A stretch of DNA of 35,329 bases, from contig JAUYGN010000119.1 in the NCBI GenBank assembly GCA_030690545.1, forward strand, positions 1 through 35,329. The letters are read 5' to 3'. How positions within the stretch are numbered: the stretch's first letter is position 1; each line of letters begins with the position of its first letter. The translations under genes were made by a program, and so were the position numbers. The notes beneath the pieces were generated by a model, which saw nothing but the letters and a program-made list of their open reading frames with translations, did not search any database and had not been told where the DNA came from. Below, one piece after another: positions 5,899 to 16,060 of this stretch. This DNA is from Solirubrobacteraceae bacterium (GTDB lineage: Bacteria; Actinomycetota; Thermoleophilia; Solirubrobacterales; Solirubrobacteraceae).

Positions 5899-6675
5899 TC
5901 ATCGATCCGGTCCCCGCGCGACCGCGGCCCAGACCGGGGGAGCGACCTGCGCGGCGGCGGCGTTGGGATCGACGCCGGCATCGCGCAGGATCAGGGGTCC
6001 CGCCCTGCGCCCCGCGAAGCGGCGAGCGATCGTCGTGGCGCGCCTGGACGGAGCGTCGTAGACGGCGGCGAGCAGCTGGCGCAGTCGACGCTCGGCATCG
6101 GCCTGCAGCGGCTCGCGCGCCCGGATGCGCAGCAGCGCCGCACTGACGTTGGGAGCGGGCGCGAAGGCCGTGCGCGGCACGACGCGCACGATCCGCAGGT
6201 CGTAGCGAGCGGTCCACCATGCCGCCCGTGCGCTGCGCGGCAGTCGGGCGCTGAGACGGATCGCGAAGCCGTGCTCGACGAGCAGGTCGATGCCGGCGCG
6301 AGGGCGCCCCGGAGGATCGAGGAGCTTGGCGACGAGCGCCCCGGACGTCGCGAACGGCAGGTTGGCGACGACCTTCGCGCGGCGCGGGATCTGGACGCTG
6401 CGCAGGTCGGCCGCGACGACGCGCACGTGGCCGAAGCGACCGAAGCGCCGCTGCAGGTCGTGCACGAAGCGCGGGTCGCGCTCGACCGCCGTGACGGTCG
6501 CGCCCGTGCGGGCCAGCGCGGCGGTCAGCGTTCCCGGCCCCGCGCCGAGGTCGAAGACGTGATCGGCCGGGCACAGGTCGGCCGAGCGCATGATCGCGCG
6601 CAGGACAGGGGTGCAATGCAGGTGATGGATGCCCGAGGGGTTGGCTCGGGAACGGCGTGCGGTACGGGCCGGCAT
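5899..6675 (-). CDS. erm: Erm-type 23S rRNA adenine N6-methyltransferase
   Basis: A 258-residue S-adenosylmethionine-dependent methyltransferase of the KsgA/Erm superfamily. Motif I VFDLGAGPGTLT (about 40-51) binds the cofactor, VERD near residue 65 is the acidic ribose contact, and NLPF (105-108) is the catalytic adenine-binding motif. Erm proteins methylate A2058 of 23S rRNA and give macrolide-lincosamide-streptogramin B resistance. Erm rather than KsgA is favoured by the Arg-rich N-terminus with HHLHCTPV in place of the KsgA QNFL segment, by NLPF rather than NLPY, and by the control region upstream. AAGGAG lies seven bases before the ATG. The 468-base upstream region carries a leader peptide with an Arg-Leu-Arg motif and pairing arms. 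Intrinsic self-protection or resistance is the likely role; specificity is inferred. Confidence 0.85.
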   Translation of the reverse strand: MPARTARRSRANPSGIHHLHCTPVLRAIMRSADLCPADHVFDLGAGPGTLTAALARTGATVTAVERDPRFVHDLQRRFGRFGHVRVVAADLRSVQIPRRAKVVANLPFATSGALVAKLLDPPGRPRAGIDLLVEHGFAIRLSARLPRSARAAWWTARYDLRIVRVVPRTAFAPAPNVSAALLRIRAREPLQADAERRLRQLLAAVYDAPSRRATTIARRFAGRRAGPLILRDAGVDPNAAAAQVAPPVWAAVARGPDR

Positions 6676-6683
6676 GCGGTGCT

Positions 6684-6871
6684 CCTTCGTCTCGGTGCGA
6701 TGACGCGCCCGGACGGGTGAGCGATGAGTCGGTCCGGACGGCGGCGAGGTCAGCGGGCCACCCGGGGGTGGCGGACGACCGCGAGCGAAGCAACGAAGGG
6801 GCCCGTGATCCCTAGTACGAGATCACGAACGAGGGCGCGCGCTCAGGCGCGCCACGGATCGCTTCGCTCGC
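6684..6871 (-). promoter_or_regulatory. Candidate erm attenuator (pairing arms between leader and erm RBS)
   Basis: In the transcript, the arm at 6871-6861 starts on the base after the leader stop codon. It is an exact 11-base inverted repeat of 6791-6781. Between them sits a 7-base hairpin (6827-6821 with 6810-6804). The seven bases at 6799-6793, immediately before the second arm, are exactly complementary to 6690-6684, which contains the erm ribosome binding site. A further hairpin, GCCACC/GGTGGC, lies at 6757-6772. A ribosome stalled inside the leader would cover the first arm and could change the fold around the erm start. The repeats are seen directly; the switching model is inference from known erm attenuators. 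Confidence 0.55.
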
Positions 6872-6913
6872 TCAGCGGCGAAGACGAACTGCGTATATGC
6901 ACACGACGCACAT
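6872..6913 (-). CDS. Putative erm leader peptide with RLR arrest motif
   Basis: ATG at 6913 opens a 13-codon frame, MCVVCIYAVRLRR, closed by TGA at 6874-6872, in the same direction as erm and 196 bases before the erm start. Leader peptides of several inducible erm genes end in an Arg/Lys-x-Arg/Lys motif such as RLR, at which macrolide-bound ribosomes stall; this peptide has VRLRR at its end. The stop codon abuts one arm of an 11-base inverted repeat. There is no clear Shine-Dalgarno sequence. TAGCCT eight bases before the ATG may be a -10 box, which would make this leader itself leaderless. It is too short for statistical support, so the call rests on motif, position and flanking structure. 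Confidence 0.6.
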   Translation of the reverse strand: MCVVCIYAVRLRR

Positions 6914-7143
6914 GCCACTGCAGGCTAACACCGACGCCACCGAAAGCGAAGGCCCGTGGATCATCCGACCGGCGGTCGGGATGGCTGTTGGCACGGCGCT
7001 CCAGCACGGCGACGAGCGCATCAGGCGATCGTCGCCGGATCGGCCGTCGGCGACGGGCGTCCGGTCTCGACGCAGGATGGCTGGCCACCTGACCGCGTGA
7101 CGTCTGAGGACACACCCGGCCGAGTCACCGATCGGCGCGGGCG
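6914..7143. other. Intergenic region between erm leader and membrane-protein gene
   Basis: About 230 bases with no gene that I can support. It must hold the divergent promoters for the erm leader and the plus-strand membrane protein. On the minus strand TAGCCT at 6927-6922 is the best -10 candidate for the leader; the -35 is weak. Base composition is lower in GC than in the genes further out. Confidence 0.5.
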
Positions 7144-8130
7144 ATGCTCAGCGGCTCCAAGGAGACAGCCGGTCTCACCACAGCCCATGCGGCACGGTTG
7201 CCGTTCTGGTTGACTTCACTCGTGGATCCCGCTCGCCAGGTCATCCGATACACCGTGCCCGGCGGCCTGGCCGTCCTCTTTGCGGTGGCAACGTATGCCA
7301 CCTTTCGAGTCCTCTGGGGCGTCACACTCACGGAGATCGAGGCGCTTACGCGAGTGACCACCAGCGTGACCGCCATCGCCGCAAGCGTGCCGGTGGGGTT
7401 CGTCATCTACCAGGTCTACTACTGGTCGTACTCACCCTTGGTGCGGAGACGGTACGTCACACGCGATCGCGGAGCCGAGGTGCTGAAAGGCCTCGACGAC
7501 GACGTCTTGGCTCGACTGCGGACCTTGTTGGACGCTCGACTGGATGTCGACAGGAGTCATCGGCAAGCGAGCACAGGGCTCGCACGGGCGCTCCGGCTCC
7601 TTGAACTGGACCATGAGGCCATGAGATCGCGGTATCCAGCGTCTGCCGACGGCTCCCGACCTACGAACGCGGAGCTGCGAGCCATCTACCGCGAGAACTG
7701 GTTTGAGAACTGGGATGTGTTTCGCAGCCTTCTGGACCTCCTGCATACCCATGGCCACGGCGAGGAGCTCAAACGAGAGTTCGTCAGCTTGTCCGATATC
7801 TACCATTCCCTTGGTGCCTCGCGCGCCGCGGTGGCCGCCGGCTGGCTGGTGGCTTTCGTCTATCTCCCCGTCGCCCACCACGCCGACTTCTTCGCCAACC
7901 CTGCAGCATCCGTGCTCGGCGCGGTCATCACGGCCTCCTCGACGCTGGCCATCGCCTACGTCTTGCACCGCACGCGACATGCGACATGGAAGACCGCCGT
8001 CGGCAGCATCCAGTTCGGATTGCGATGGTGCGTCGCGACCAGTGACGGGTTTCAAGCGGTGCTGCGCGCTTCTCAGCCCGCAAGCGAACACGCGTCGGAC
8101 AGCGGCCCGGCGCTCGCACCATTGTCCTGA
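7144..8130 (+). CDS. Hypothetical membrane protein with four predicted membrane segments
   Basis: I do not recognise this 328-residue protein. Two hydrophobic segments lie near the N-terminus (YTVPGGLAVLFAVATYATF and VTAIAASVPVGFVIYQVYYW), then a soluble part of roughly 120 residues rich in Arg, Asp and Glu with several Trp/Phe, then two more membrane segments (AAVAAGWLVAFVYLPVA and SVLGAVITASSTLAIAYVL). The C-terminus is polar and disordered. Codon use includes many TTG, CTT, CGA and ACA codons and the GC content is visibly lower than in neighbouring genes, which suggests transfer or relaxed selection. The ATG at 7144 has only a weak preceding purine run. It may have arrived together with the adjacent erm region, but nothing shows a joint function. 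Confidence 0.7.
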   Translation: MLSGSKETAGLTTAHAARLPFWLTSLVDPARQVIRYTVPGGLAVLFAVATYATFRVLWGVTLTEIEALTRVTTSVTAIAASVPVGFVIYQVYYWSYSPLVRRRYVTRDRGAEVLKGLDDDVLARLRTLLDARLDVDRSHRQASTGLARALRLLELDHEAMRSRYPASADGSRPTNAELRAIYRENWFENWDVFRSLLDLLHTHGHGEELKREFVSLSDIYHSLGASRAAVAAGWLVAFVYLPVAHHADFFANPAASVLGAVITASSTLAIAYVLHRTRHATWKTAVGSIQFGLRWCVATSDGFQAVLRASQPASEHASDSGPALAPLS

Positions 8131-8182: not shown

Positions 8183-8668
8183 TCACCGCCGGCCGGCGGC
8201 GACCTCGACCTGGACGAGCGCGGCGAGCCGCTCGGGCGCGACCGCGTGGCGGGCGAGCAGGCGAGCGAGCGTCGGGGACGGCGGTCGTAGCGTGCCGAGC
8301 AGGATGTGCTCGGCGCCGAGCCGGCGGTCGCCGCGGGCGACGGCTTCGCGCAGCGCGTGCTCGAGCGCCTGCTTGGCGTGCACGCTGTACCCCGGCTGGT
8401 CGGCGCGCGGCAGCGCGGGTACCGCGCCGACGACGGACGCCGGCACGCCGACGACGTCGAGCATCGCGACGAGGTCGGCCTCGATCGCCTCGGCGATGAC
8501 CTGATCGTCGAGGCCGAGCTCGACCAGCGCGCGCGCCGCGGCCGTGTCGCTCTCGGCGAGCGCGAGCAGGAGATGCTCGGACTCGACCTGCTCGGCGCCC
8601 AGGCGCCGGGCGGCCCGCCGAGCGCCGACCACGACCTGGCGCGCCTCGCGCGTGAAGCGCTCAAACAC
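8183..8668 (-). CDS. Clp N-terminal-domain protein
   Basis: About 161 residues forming the two-repeat Clp N domain alone: FERFTREARQVVVGARRAA and LGAEQVESEHLLLALA form the first repeat, YSVHAKQALEHALREAVARG and LGAEHILLGTL the second. In ClpA/ClpC this domain binds substrates and adaptors. No ATPase module follows, so the protein cannot unfold substrates by itself and may be a decoy, adaptor or sensor domain. The GTG at 8668 overlaps the TGA of the HTH gene by eight bases (GTGTTTGA), so translation is coupled. Pairs of small HTH and stand-alone Clp-N genes recur in actinobacteria; the split HTH/Clp-N pair may act as one regulator responding to protein-quality signals. That role is inference. 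Confidence 0.85.
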   Translation of the reverse strand: MFERFTREARQVVVGARRAARRLGAEQVESEHLLLALAESDTAAARALVELGLDDQVIAEAIEADLVAMLDVVGVPASVVGAVPALPRADQPGYSVHAKQALEHALREAVARGDRRLGAEHILLGTLRPPSPTLARLLARHAVAPERLAALVQVEVAAGRR

Positions 8669-8906
8669 GGCCGCGCTCCGATCGCACGCCGCGCGCGCGC
8701 AGGCGCTTGGCGTGCTTCTTGTGCACGGCCTGGCGGCTGACGCCGAGCGCCGCCGCGATGTCGCTCCACGACCAGCCGTCGACGACGGCCCGCTCGACCT
8801 GCCCGGCCTCGAGCCGGTCGGCGAGCTGGCGCAGCGCGAGCACCGCGGCGAAGCCCTCCGCCGGATCGCTCGGGATTGCTTCCTCTTCGGTGGGAACGAA
8901 TGCCAT
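8661..8906 (-). CDS. Small helix-turn-helix DNA-binding protein
   Basis: An 81-residue protein. Residues about 40-75 read VERAVVDGWSWSDIAAALGVSRQAVHKKHAKRLR, a helix-turn-helix like those in sigma-factor region 4 (the quoted part spans residues seen in the frame). The N-terminus is acidic (FVPTEEEAIPSD) and the C-terminus basic. ATG 8906 was chosen because a TTGACA-N17-TACGGT promoter ends seven bases before it, placing the transcription start at the ATG itself; the longer GTG/TTG-type start near 8954 would lie upstream of the promoter. A 16-base palindrome covers the -10 region, so autoregulation is likely. Coupled to the Clp-N gene. Confidence 0.8.
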   Translation of the reverse strand: MAFVPTEEEAIPSDPAEGFAAVLALRQLADRLEAGQVERAVVDGWSWSDIAAALGVSRQAVHKKHAKRLRARGVRSERGRV

Positions 8907-8942
8907 GACGTCAACCGTAGTTGACGCTGGCTCCGTTGTCAA
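8907..8942 (-). promoter_or_regulatory. Leaderless promoter with palindromic operator for HTH/Clp-N genes
   Basis: On the minus strand TTGACA and TACGGT are separated by 17 bases, and the ATG lies seven bases after the -10, so the mRNA is probably leaderless. GTCAAC-TACG-GTTGAC (8925-8910) is a perfect 6-4-6 palindrome covering the -10 box. A second palindrome, GTTGACAAC, overlaps the -35. Both share the GTTGAC half-site. The likely binder is the encoded HTH protein. Confidence 0.65.
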
Positions 8943-15053: not shown

Positions 15054-15869
15054 CTAGAAGCCCTTCGGGTGAACGACGCGGTAGCCCTTGGCCGAGCGCG
15101 TGCTCGACTGCCAGCGGCTGCCCGTGCGCTGCCGACCGCTCGTGTCGAAGCGCAGGCCCGCGACGACCATGTACATGTGGCCCCTGTTGGCGTAGATCGT
15201 GATCCACTGGCCGGGACCTCGTTCGCCCCAGTTCATGAAGCCGCCGGACGGCATCGAGGCCTTCAGCAGGCCGCCGCCGTACAGCGCGTAGGAGACGGAG
15301 CCCGAGCAGTCATAGCCGGAGTCCTCCCACTTGCCGTGACCGCCGCCGTAGATGTAGGGCGTCTTGGCGATCTTGTTGCCGGCCGCGATCACCGCGTGGA
15401 CCTCCGGCGGCGCGAGGATCGGCGCGACCGCGAGGCCGTCGGGCCCGACGGTCGCCCTCATGCCCGGGCCGAGCGCGAGCGGCGGTGGCTCCGGCGGCGG
15501 AACCGGCTTGACGTTCTCGGGCAGCGCGCCGCCGGTCGAGGCAGCCGAGGCGACGGCGCCGCCGTTGACGGCGACGTCCTTGATCACCCTGGCGTCGGTG
15601 CGCGTGACCCTGCCGTCGACCCTGAGGCGCTGCCCGCGCTTGAAGTCGCGGACCGCGCCCGCCGTGCCCCTGCCGAAGACGCCGTCGACGGCGACGTCGA
15701 GGCCGGAGCGTCCGAGATAGCGCTGGAGGGTCCTGACGTCGTTGCCCTTGTGTCCCTGCTTGAGGACCCGCTCCCCATAGTCCCAGCTGCGCGTCTGCGA
15801 CGACGCCTGGGCGGGTACGAGCAGGACCACAGCCAGCAGGCACATGGTGAGGCGGTACAACGGCTTCAC
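15054..15869 (-). CDS. Secreted peptidoglycan hydrolase, PG-binding plus NlpC/P60-like domains
   Basis: A 271-residue exported protein. GTG 15869 follows AGGAGAAGGGG at good spacing and gives a signal peptide (VKPLYRLTMCLLAVVLLVPAQA). Residues about 30-100 (VLKQGHKGNDVRTLQRYL, VDGVFGRGTAGAVRDFKR) form a PG_binding_1 domain. After a Pro-rich linker comes an NlpC/P60-like domain with Cys188 in YDCSGS and His231 in NRGHMYMVV. The catalytic domain closely parallels the coiled-coil hydrolase at 9919-11058. A c-di-AMP riboswitch precedes the gene, so wall hydrolysis is presumably tuned to c-di-AMP, as for other actinobacterial wall hydrolase genes under this riboswitch class. Confidence 0.9.
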   Translation of the reverse strand: MKPLYRLTMCLLAVVLLVPAQASSQTRSWDYGERVLKQGHKGNDVRTLQRYLGRSGLDVAVDGVFGRGTAGAVRDFKRGQRLRVDGRVTRTDARVIKDVAVNGGAVASAASTGGALPENVKPVPPPEPPPLALGPGMRATVGPDGLAVAPILAPPEVHAVIAAGNKIAKTPYIYGGGHGKWEDSGYDCSGSVSYALYGGGLLKASMPSGGFMNWGERGPGQWITIYANRGHMYMVVAGLRFDTSGRQRTGSRWQSSTRSAKGYRVVHPKGF

Positions 15870-15884
15870 GCGGGCTAGACCCCT

Positions 15885-16060
15885 TCTCCTTCGAATGCCT
15901 GCGGGGTTAGCTGACGGGCTCGCGCAGAAAGAGCTAGCGCTATGCCGCACAAGGCGGCGATTCGCCCCAGGAGCACGACTTCGTGCCCCAATGGTTCCCC
16001 CGTTCCCCGCCGAAGATCGACGGGGATTCGGCTGATCACTGACCGGCGGAACCCTAGCGC
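15885..16060 (-). ncRNA. c-di-AMP (ydaO-yuaA type) riboswitch
   Basis: On the minus strand, two hallmark blocks of the ydaO-yuaA riboswitch are visible: CGGGGGAACCATTGGGGC at 16002-15985 and CCCGTCAGCTAACCCCGCAG ending near 15899, the latter followed by GGC and an AAGGAG just ahead of the coding region. The upstream part (GATCAGCCGAATCCCC near 16040) fits the conserved 5' half. This class binds c-di-AMP, usually turns genes off when ligand is high, and often precedes cell-wall hydrolase genes in actinobacteria. It sits 15-190 bases before the hydrolase start. The outer helix boundaries are estimated by eye. Confidence 0.85.

What the first reader, a model, noticed from the sequence alone, without database searches (positions are those of the whole stretch)
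6684..6913. Undescribed-looking erm leader peptide ending VRLRR with an attenuator-like RNA fold
Seen: a 13-codon frame (MCVVCIYAVRLRR) ends one base before an arm that is exactly repeated, inverted, 69 bases further on. The seven bases just before that second arm are exactly complementary to the segment holding the erm ribosome binding site. Known: several inducible erm genes use leaders with an Arg-Leu-Arg type motif that arrests macrolide-bound ribosomes. Inferred: this erm is macrolide-inducible by leader arrest in a high-GC actinobacterium. The Cys-Val-Val-Cys start of the peptide is unlike leaders I know.
Basis: partly seen in the sequence, partly recalled or inferred. Interest (0 to 1): 0.8.

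Follow-up and report, generated by a model that had tools for sequence, protein, structure and literature searches.

The report
Leaderless Arg-Leu-Arg sensor before erm
Ahead of a ribosome-protecting (erm-type) resistance gene in a soil-type actinobacterium sits a 13-codon mini-gene whose Arg-Leu-Arg ending is kept in its closest relatives, so it is very probably a ribosome-stalling sensor for macrolide antibiotics, of a known kind but in an undescribed form placed at the very start of its messenger RNA.

Summary
The leader is real. MCVVCIYAVRLRR* (6913-6872, minus) precedes an Erm-like 23S rRNA methyltransferase (6675-5899). A whole-order search found four relatives 56-68% identical. Three carry a leader at nearly the same distance (about -240 nt) with the same end: ...FIRLRRR*, ...SVRIRS*, ...SIRLRSA*. 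The fourth has ...VTRRRV*. Arg-X-Arg is the constant part; the Cys-Val-Val-Cys start is not conserved. In the window and those three, a TANNNT box lies 7-8 nt before the start codon and there is no Shine-Dalgarno sequence, so the uORF is probably leaderless. Shuffles give this combination in at most 0.05% of cases. The leader RNA is folded more than chance in four of five loci. However, the proposed pairing of a 7-mer with the erm ribosome-binding site is at chance level (28%), and equilibrium folding shows no consistent opening of that site when a ribosome is parked on RLR. Sensor: well supported. Attenuator switch: not shown. Kind: ErmDL/TlrB-type Arg-X-Arg leader, new variant. Surveying 64 Erm loci also turned up a second, apparently undescribed layout: in 43 of them an Arg-X-Arg uORF overlaps the erm start out of frame, so that the arrest codons contain the erm GTG. 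That is the most novel thing seen.

The parts
5899..6675 (-). Erm-like rRNA adenine dimethyltransferase gene (258 aa)
   Evidence: NCBIfam Erm broad model 149.8 bits (below its cut-off of 212) against KsgA model 108.8; Pfam RrnaAD; best PDB sequence hit the methyltransferase 6nvm; the genome has a separate KsgA on contig C118; tree
6872..6913 (-). leader ORF MCVVCIYAVRLRR* (uORF)
   Evidence: sequence; R-X-R end conserved in four homologous loci
6878..6886 (-). Arg10-Leu11-Arg12 codons, the presumed macrolide arrest site (Leu in P site, Arg in A site)
   Evidence: sequence; +X+ arrest geometry from PMC8298421
6922..6927 (-). -10-like box TAGCCT, 8 nt before the leader ATG; implies an essentially leaderless uORF
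   Evidence: same box and gap at L061, L065, L058
6858..6871 (-). arm A, 5' side of a 14-bp helix, starting directly after the leader stop codon
6781..6794 (-). arm B, 3' side of the same helix
6834..6853 (-). hairpin 2 inside the A:B junction
6801..6830 (-). hairpin 3 inside the A:B junction (12-bp stem)
6793..6799 (-). CCTTCGT, complementary to the erm RBS segment; chance-level match
6707..6739 (-). stem-loop GTCCGGAC...GTCCGGGC just 5' of the RBS, alignable with the 68% homologue L061
6682..6687 (-). erm Shine-Dalgarno AAGGAG, 6 nt before the ATG

Best explanation
This is a drug-sensing leader for an Erm-like methyltransferase. Transcription probably starts within about 2 nt of the leader ATG, so the uORF is translated from the 5' end of the mRNA. 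When a macrolide (or ketolide) sits in the exit tunnel, the ribosome stops with Leu11 in the P site and Arg12 in the A site, as on ErmDL and the TlrB leader. The parked ribosome covers the leader and the first few bases of the strong RNA structure that begins at the stop codon. This changes folding, transcript survival or RNA polymerase read-through downstream, so that more Erm is made. Shown by sequence comparison: the uORF, its conserved Arg-X-Arg end, its fixed distance to erm, the -10-like box, and more RNA structure than chance. Inferred: arrest and induction. Open: which downstream step (translation, transcription or RNA stability) is switched.
For: Three homologues (56-68% identity) keep a leader 239-251 nt upstream ending in RLR or RIR, with Leu/Ile and Arg-codon changes; the fourth (L062) ends RRRV. 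Leaderless-type uORF with this motif in at most 0.0005 of shuffles at each of four loci. The intergenic DNA is otherwise hardly alignable. Fold z of leader RNAs -2.9, -6.3, -4.0, -1.5, -5.2, against upstream controls -2.1, -1.3, -0.4, +1.9, -0.4. Window and L065 share an arm that starts at the leader stop and encloses two hairpins; in L061 and L062 the R-X-R codons themselves form the 5' arm of a hairpin. More distant actinobacterial erm loci also carry R-X-R or K-X-R uORFs. Arg-X-Arg is an experimentally shown macrolide/ketolide arrest motif (PMC8298421, PMC6238534, PMC6851288).
Against: Parking a ribosome on RLR in silico does not consistently free the RBS: opening cost 8.1 to 7.7 kcal/mol in the window, 11.2 to 7.0 in L061, but 8.7 to 10.1 in L058. 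No intrinsic terminator found. The window's upstream control is also somewhat structured (z -2.1). Erythromycin stalls at only some R-X-R motifs (PMC6851288). The protein is below the curated Erm cut-off. No transcript or drug data.
Confidence: 0.75

Rival explanations
1. Classical translation attenuation: the segment next to arm B (6799-6793) pairs with the erm RBS in the off state, and stalling on the leader rearranges the arms and frees the RBS.
For: The complementarity exists and the RBS is mostly paired in predicted folds.
Against: Seven-base complementarity occurs in 28% of shuffles. With no mask the helix is not used. Masking through arm A, as a ribosome at the stop codon would, lowers RBS openness in one model (0.32 to 0.19), the wrong direction if that were the induced state. 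In homologues the RBS pairs with other, nearer segments.
Confidence: 0.15
2. Reverse-logic attenuation: ribosomes that finish the leader at the stop codon cover arm A and let the RBS be sequestered; ribosomes arrested three codons earlier at RLR leave most of arm A free, so A:B forms and the RBS stays open.
For: Arm A starts directly after the stop codon in the window, and at the stop codon in L065. One model gives RBS unpaired 0.34 when stalled at RLR against 0.19 when masked to the stop.
Against: A slightly different sequence span removes the difference (0.35 against 0.33). Not seen in L061, L058 or L062, where the first stem includes leader codons.
Confidence: 0.12
3. Transcription attenuation or mRNA stabilisation: the stalled ribosome protects the transcript or keeps RNA polymerase going through the tandem GC-rich hairpins.
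For: Strong tandem hairpins follow the leader in all five loci. yxjB/tlrB and msrD use transcription attenuation (PMC6851288, PMC10314930), and mRNA stability has been reported to track erm expression (PMC5118997, listed).
Against: No U-run terminator. Nothing in the sequence tests Rho or RNase action.
Confidence: 0.3
4. The ORF is a chance frame and erm is constitutive, or controlled by a WhiB7-type activator only.
For: R-X-R with any start is common by chance in such GC-rich DNA (53% of shuffles in the window).
Against: Conservation of the motif, position and -10 spacing over four diverged loci; at most 0.0005 in shuffles when the -10-like box is required.
Confidence: 0.06

Closest known systems
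ErmDL / ermD leader (RLR class; PMC8298421)
   Same: Short uORF before an rRNA dimethyltransferase gene with an Arg-Leu-Arg arrest motif; arrest with Leu in the P site and Arg in the A site.
   Different: ErmDL has RLR at codons 6-8 (PMC8298421), here at 10-12 of 13 right before the stop. Here the uORF looks leaderless and the host is a GC-rich actinobacterium. N-terminal sequence unrelated.
tlrB/yxjB leader MIIQFIRYR of Bacillus subtilis (PMC6851288)
   Same: C-terminal aliphatic-Arg-X-Arg at the end of a short leader, followed by strong RNA structure before the methyltransferase RBS. R-X-R is kept in predicted relatives.
   Different: The gene there is a G748 methyltransferase (RlmAII) with an intrinsic terminator, an SD-sequestering hairpin and NusG pausing. 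No terminator was found here, and SD sequestering involving the leader is not conserved.
MsrDL (MYLIFM, PMC10314930)
   Same: Works like the short hydrophobic leaders of the sister erm clade noticed here (MAFYIFI*, MGAFYYFL*, MGTLYRFL*), which also end at the stop codon.
   Different: Not Arg-X-Arg, so not like the window leader. It controls an ABC-F gene and arrests at termination.
ErmCL and macrolide-induced frameshifting in the ermC leader (Gupta et al. 2013, described in PMC5009743)
   Same: A drug-responsive uORF controlling erm; it shows that macrolide-type drugs can redirect ribosomes within a leader.
   Different: Different arrest motif. In ermC the shifted ribosome only unfolds the spacer; it does not enter erm.

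Membership tests
Arg-X-Arg (ErmDL/TlrB-type) macrolide-arrest leader | Short uORF immediately upstream of, and co-oriented with, a macrolide-resistance methyltransferase gene | tested here: met
Arg-X-Arg (ErmDL/TlrB-type) macrolide-arrest leader | R/K-X-R/K motif in the leader, conserved in homologues | tested here: met
   RLR, RLR, RIR, RLR and RRR in the five loci of the clade; shuffle control
Arg-X-Arg (ErmDL/TlrB-type) macrolide-arrest leader | Drug-dependent ribosome arrest with X in the P site | not testable with these tools
   needs toeprinting or ribosome profiling
Translation attenuator (ermC type) | RBS sequestered without drug and freed when the ribosome stalls on the leader | tested here: inconclusive
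   equilibrium folding gives no consistent change over five loci
Transcription attenuator (tlrB/msrD type) | Intrinsic terminator between leader and gene | tested here: not met
   no terminator-like site in 6600-7150; Rho-dependent or U-less termination not testable
Erm 23S rRNA (A2058) methyltransferase | RrnaAD fold family | tested here: met
   PF00398 98.4 bits; PDB hits incl. ErmC' and Erm(38)
Erm 23S rRNA (A2058) methyltransferase | Curated NCBIfam Erm cut-off NF000499 (212 bits) | tested here: not met
   149.8 bits; still the best family, KsgA model 108.8. Hence called Erm-like
Erm 23S rRNA (A2058) methyltransferase | Distinct from the housekeeping KsgA of the same genome | tested here: met
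   separate KsgA-like gene on contig C118, 32% identity; far apart in the tree
Erm 23S rRNA (A2058) methyltransferase | Methylates A2058 and gives MLS resistance | not testable with these tools
   no activity data

The most novel reading that the evidence does not exclude
Actinobacterial erm genes are controlled by a wide family of Arg-X-Arg sensor uORFs, often at the 5' end of leaderless transcripts. In most lineages surveyed the sensor overlaps the erm start out of frame and its R-X-R codons contain the erm GTG, so that drug arrest itself redirects the ribosome into erm, by drop-off and re-initiation at GTG or by a +1 shift, without any attenuator. The window's clade, which lies beside such loci in the tree, would be a lineage in which the same sensor sits about 240 nt upstream and acts through RNA structure instead.
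Probability: 0.4. Interest if true: 0.82.

Novelty: new variant of a known kind. Interest (0 to 1): 0.55.

Why it matters
It extends drug-sensing leader control to erm genes of Solirubrobacterales-type soil actinobacteria, in a form where the sensor uORF seems to be the first thing on the mRNA. This makes a testable case of macrolide arrest on a leaderless start, where the inhibited ribosome must initiate without Shine-Dalgarno help. The same survey points to a more radical layout, a uORF overlapping the erm start, which would let arrest switch on a gene without RNA refolding. Environmental erm genes of this kind are a reservoir for resistance that current leader catalogues do not describe.

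Tried and rejected
Chance ORF: rejected by conservation and shuffles. The 7-mer/RBS helix as the switch: chance level and not conserved. Consistent RBS release by a ribosome on RLR: not found under two footprints in five loci. Intrinsic terminator or sigma-70 consensus promoter: none found. A known structured RNA: the only Rfam hit in the window is a c-di-AMP riboswitch elsewhere. The Cys-Val-Val-Cys start as a defining feature: not conserved. Reading the uORF from upstream GTG codons: the -10-like box would then lie inside the ORF. More homologues: the whole order (232 genomes) gives only five members of this Erm clade; one scan of genome contigs gave distant relatives only. Literature searches found no description of these leaders, but most subscription papers are not held.

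Full report
WHAT IS THERE. On the minus strand, 6913-6872 encodes MCVVCIYAVRLRR*. It lies 196 nt before the ATG (6675) of a 258-residue Erm-like methyltransferase with SD AAGGAG at 6687-6682. The protein scores best against NCBIfam's broad Erm model (149.8 bits, below its curated cut-off of 212; KsgA model 108.8). The genome has a separate KsgA, so this is the extra, Erm-like paralogue.

CHANCE. Dinucleotide shuffles of the 320 nt upstream of erm give a uORF with aliphatic/Phe-Arg-aliphatic-Arg and a TANNNT box 5-9 nt before its start in 0.05% of cases for the window and 0 of 2000 for each of three homologues. Without the box, the motif alone appears in 0.2-4.4%, and plain R-X-R in 13-53%. So the motif alone is weak evidence; its conservation and setting are strong. 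The 11-bp arm pair is reached in 2.7% of shuffles. The heptamer is reached in 28% and carries no weight.

RELATIVES. A search of all 232 genomes held for the order found five members of this Erm clade: the window, L004/L061 (68% identity), L005/L062 (57%), L057/L065 (56%) and the partial L058 (61%). Only one of seven genomes of the window's own genus has it, so its distribution is patchy. Leaders: MCVVCIYAVRLRR*, MLAGIHCPQYFIRLRRR*, MLASVRIRS*, MLASIRLRSA*, and in L062, right behind another gene, MAGAAAAAVTRRRV*. What is kept is R-X-R near the C-terminus, the distance to erm, and, in all but L062, a TANNNT box 7-8 nt before the start codon with no SD. Most of the intergenic DNA does not align; only the last 75 nt before erm do, and only with L061.

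TAXON. Names are withheld. L013/L014 are titled uncultured Gaiellaceae and Actinobacteria, and their uORF peptides equal those of class-mates L072/L071, so the class is probably Thermoleophilia. Contig length 6,359,369 (G044) is, from memory, that of Conexibacter woesei. This is inference.

RNA STRUCTURE. Leader RNAs from the uORF to the erm start fold better than their own shuffles: z -2.9 (window), -6.3, -4.0, -1.5 and -5.2, against -2.1, -1.3, -0.4, +1.9 and -0.4 for the DNA just upstream. The window and L065 share a topology without sharing sequence: a long stem whose 5' arm starts at the leader stop codon and which encloses two hairpins. In L061 and L062 the R-X-R codons themselves are the 5' arm of a 10-bp or 8-bp hairpin with a 3-nt loop. 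In each case a ribosome arrested on R-X-R sits on or against the first stem. Folding with the arrested ribosome masked does not give a uniform release of the RBS, so the downstream step remains open. No terminator was found.

MECHANISM. Arg-X-Arg is a proven macrolide/ketolide arrest motif, with X in the P site and the second Arg in the A site (PMC8298421; PMC6238534). The TlrB leader MIIQFIRYR shows the same C-terminal placement and controls its gene by transcription and translation attenuation (PMC6851288). By analogy the window leader is a macrolide sensor. That erythromycin stalls at only a subset of R-X-R motifs (same paper) is a caution about which drug induces.

WIDER SURVEY. Of 64 Erm loci from Actinomycetota, 18 have a distal leader. 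These include KLR, RLR, RMR and RDR types in distant families, and short hydrophobic ones ending at the stop (MAFYIFI, MGAFYYFL, MGTLYRFL, MQNLVMYL) reminiscent of MsrDL. In 43 others a uORF starts 10-37 nt (mostly 19-28) before the erm GTG, one base out of frame, and its first Arg codon CGT plus the next G contains the GTG. Over the 46 non-distal loci: GTG in 45, C at -1 in 44, and the second Arg of R-X-R present in 42 with all six Arg codons in use, which argues for selection on the peptide in the uORF frame. Some of these erm frames have no other start (in-frame stop often at -9) and no evident SD for the GTG. The tree puts the window clade (100/100) beside such loci, though several deep forks are weak. 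A caveat: the overlap label itself required an Arg codon at the start, but only three of the 46 fell outside it.

VERDICT. A real, conserved Arg-X-Arg leader, most likely macrolide-sensing, probably leaderless: new variant of a known kind. The specific attenuator pairing proposed is not supported. The overlap layout in relatives deserves its own study.

Noticed in passing
L069-L088, L091-L093, L095-L099, L102, L107, L117-L123, L125-L129, L063, L007 (coordinates and sequences): In 43 of 64 surveyed actinobacterial Erm loci a uORF (M...[FV]R[GV]R...) overlaps the erm start in another frame; its R-X-R codons contain the erm GTG. C at -1 in 44/46 non-distal loci, second Arg in 42/46 with all six Arg codons used; 24 have a TANNNT box 6-10 nt before the uORF start. 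Possible arrest-driven re-initiation or +1 frameshift into erm.
   Followed up: partly
L064, L066, L068 (also L009-L011, L059), L090: A separate Erm clade has very short hydrophobic leaders ending at the stop codon (MGTLYRFL, MAFYIFI, MGAFYYFL, MQNLVMYL) with a TANNNT box 6-9 nt upstream; they resemble MsrDL (MYLIFM) rather than Arg-X-Arg leaders.
   Followed up: partly
L100, L101, L103, L104, L105, L108, L109, L089, L094: Distal leaders with RLR, KLR, RMR or RDR motifs, also with -10-like boxes close to the start codon, in other actinobacterial families.
   Followed up: partly
window 15881-16043 minus: c-di-AMP riboswitch (Rfam RF00379, 77.5 bits). It overlaps the 5' end of a minus-strand ORF (15054-15950) with a peptidoglycan-binding domain, whose true start is therefore probably downstream.
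   Followed up: partly
L062 (G057), upstream of erm: Here erm follows the end of another gene (read by eye as gluconolactonase-like); the presumed leader MAGAAAAAVTRRRV starts at the overlapping TGATG, so the sensor may be fed by coupled translation instead of a leaderless start.
   Followed up: no
window 8183-8914 minus and 7144-8130 plus: Neighbouring ORFs: one with a Clp N-terminal domain, one of unknown function with only a weak BA5345-family match; relation to erm unknown.
   Followed up: no
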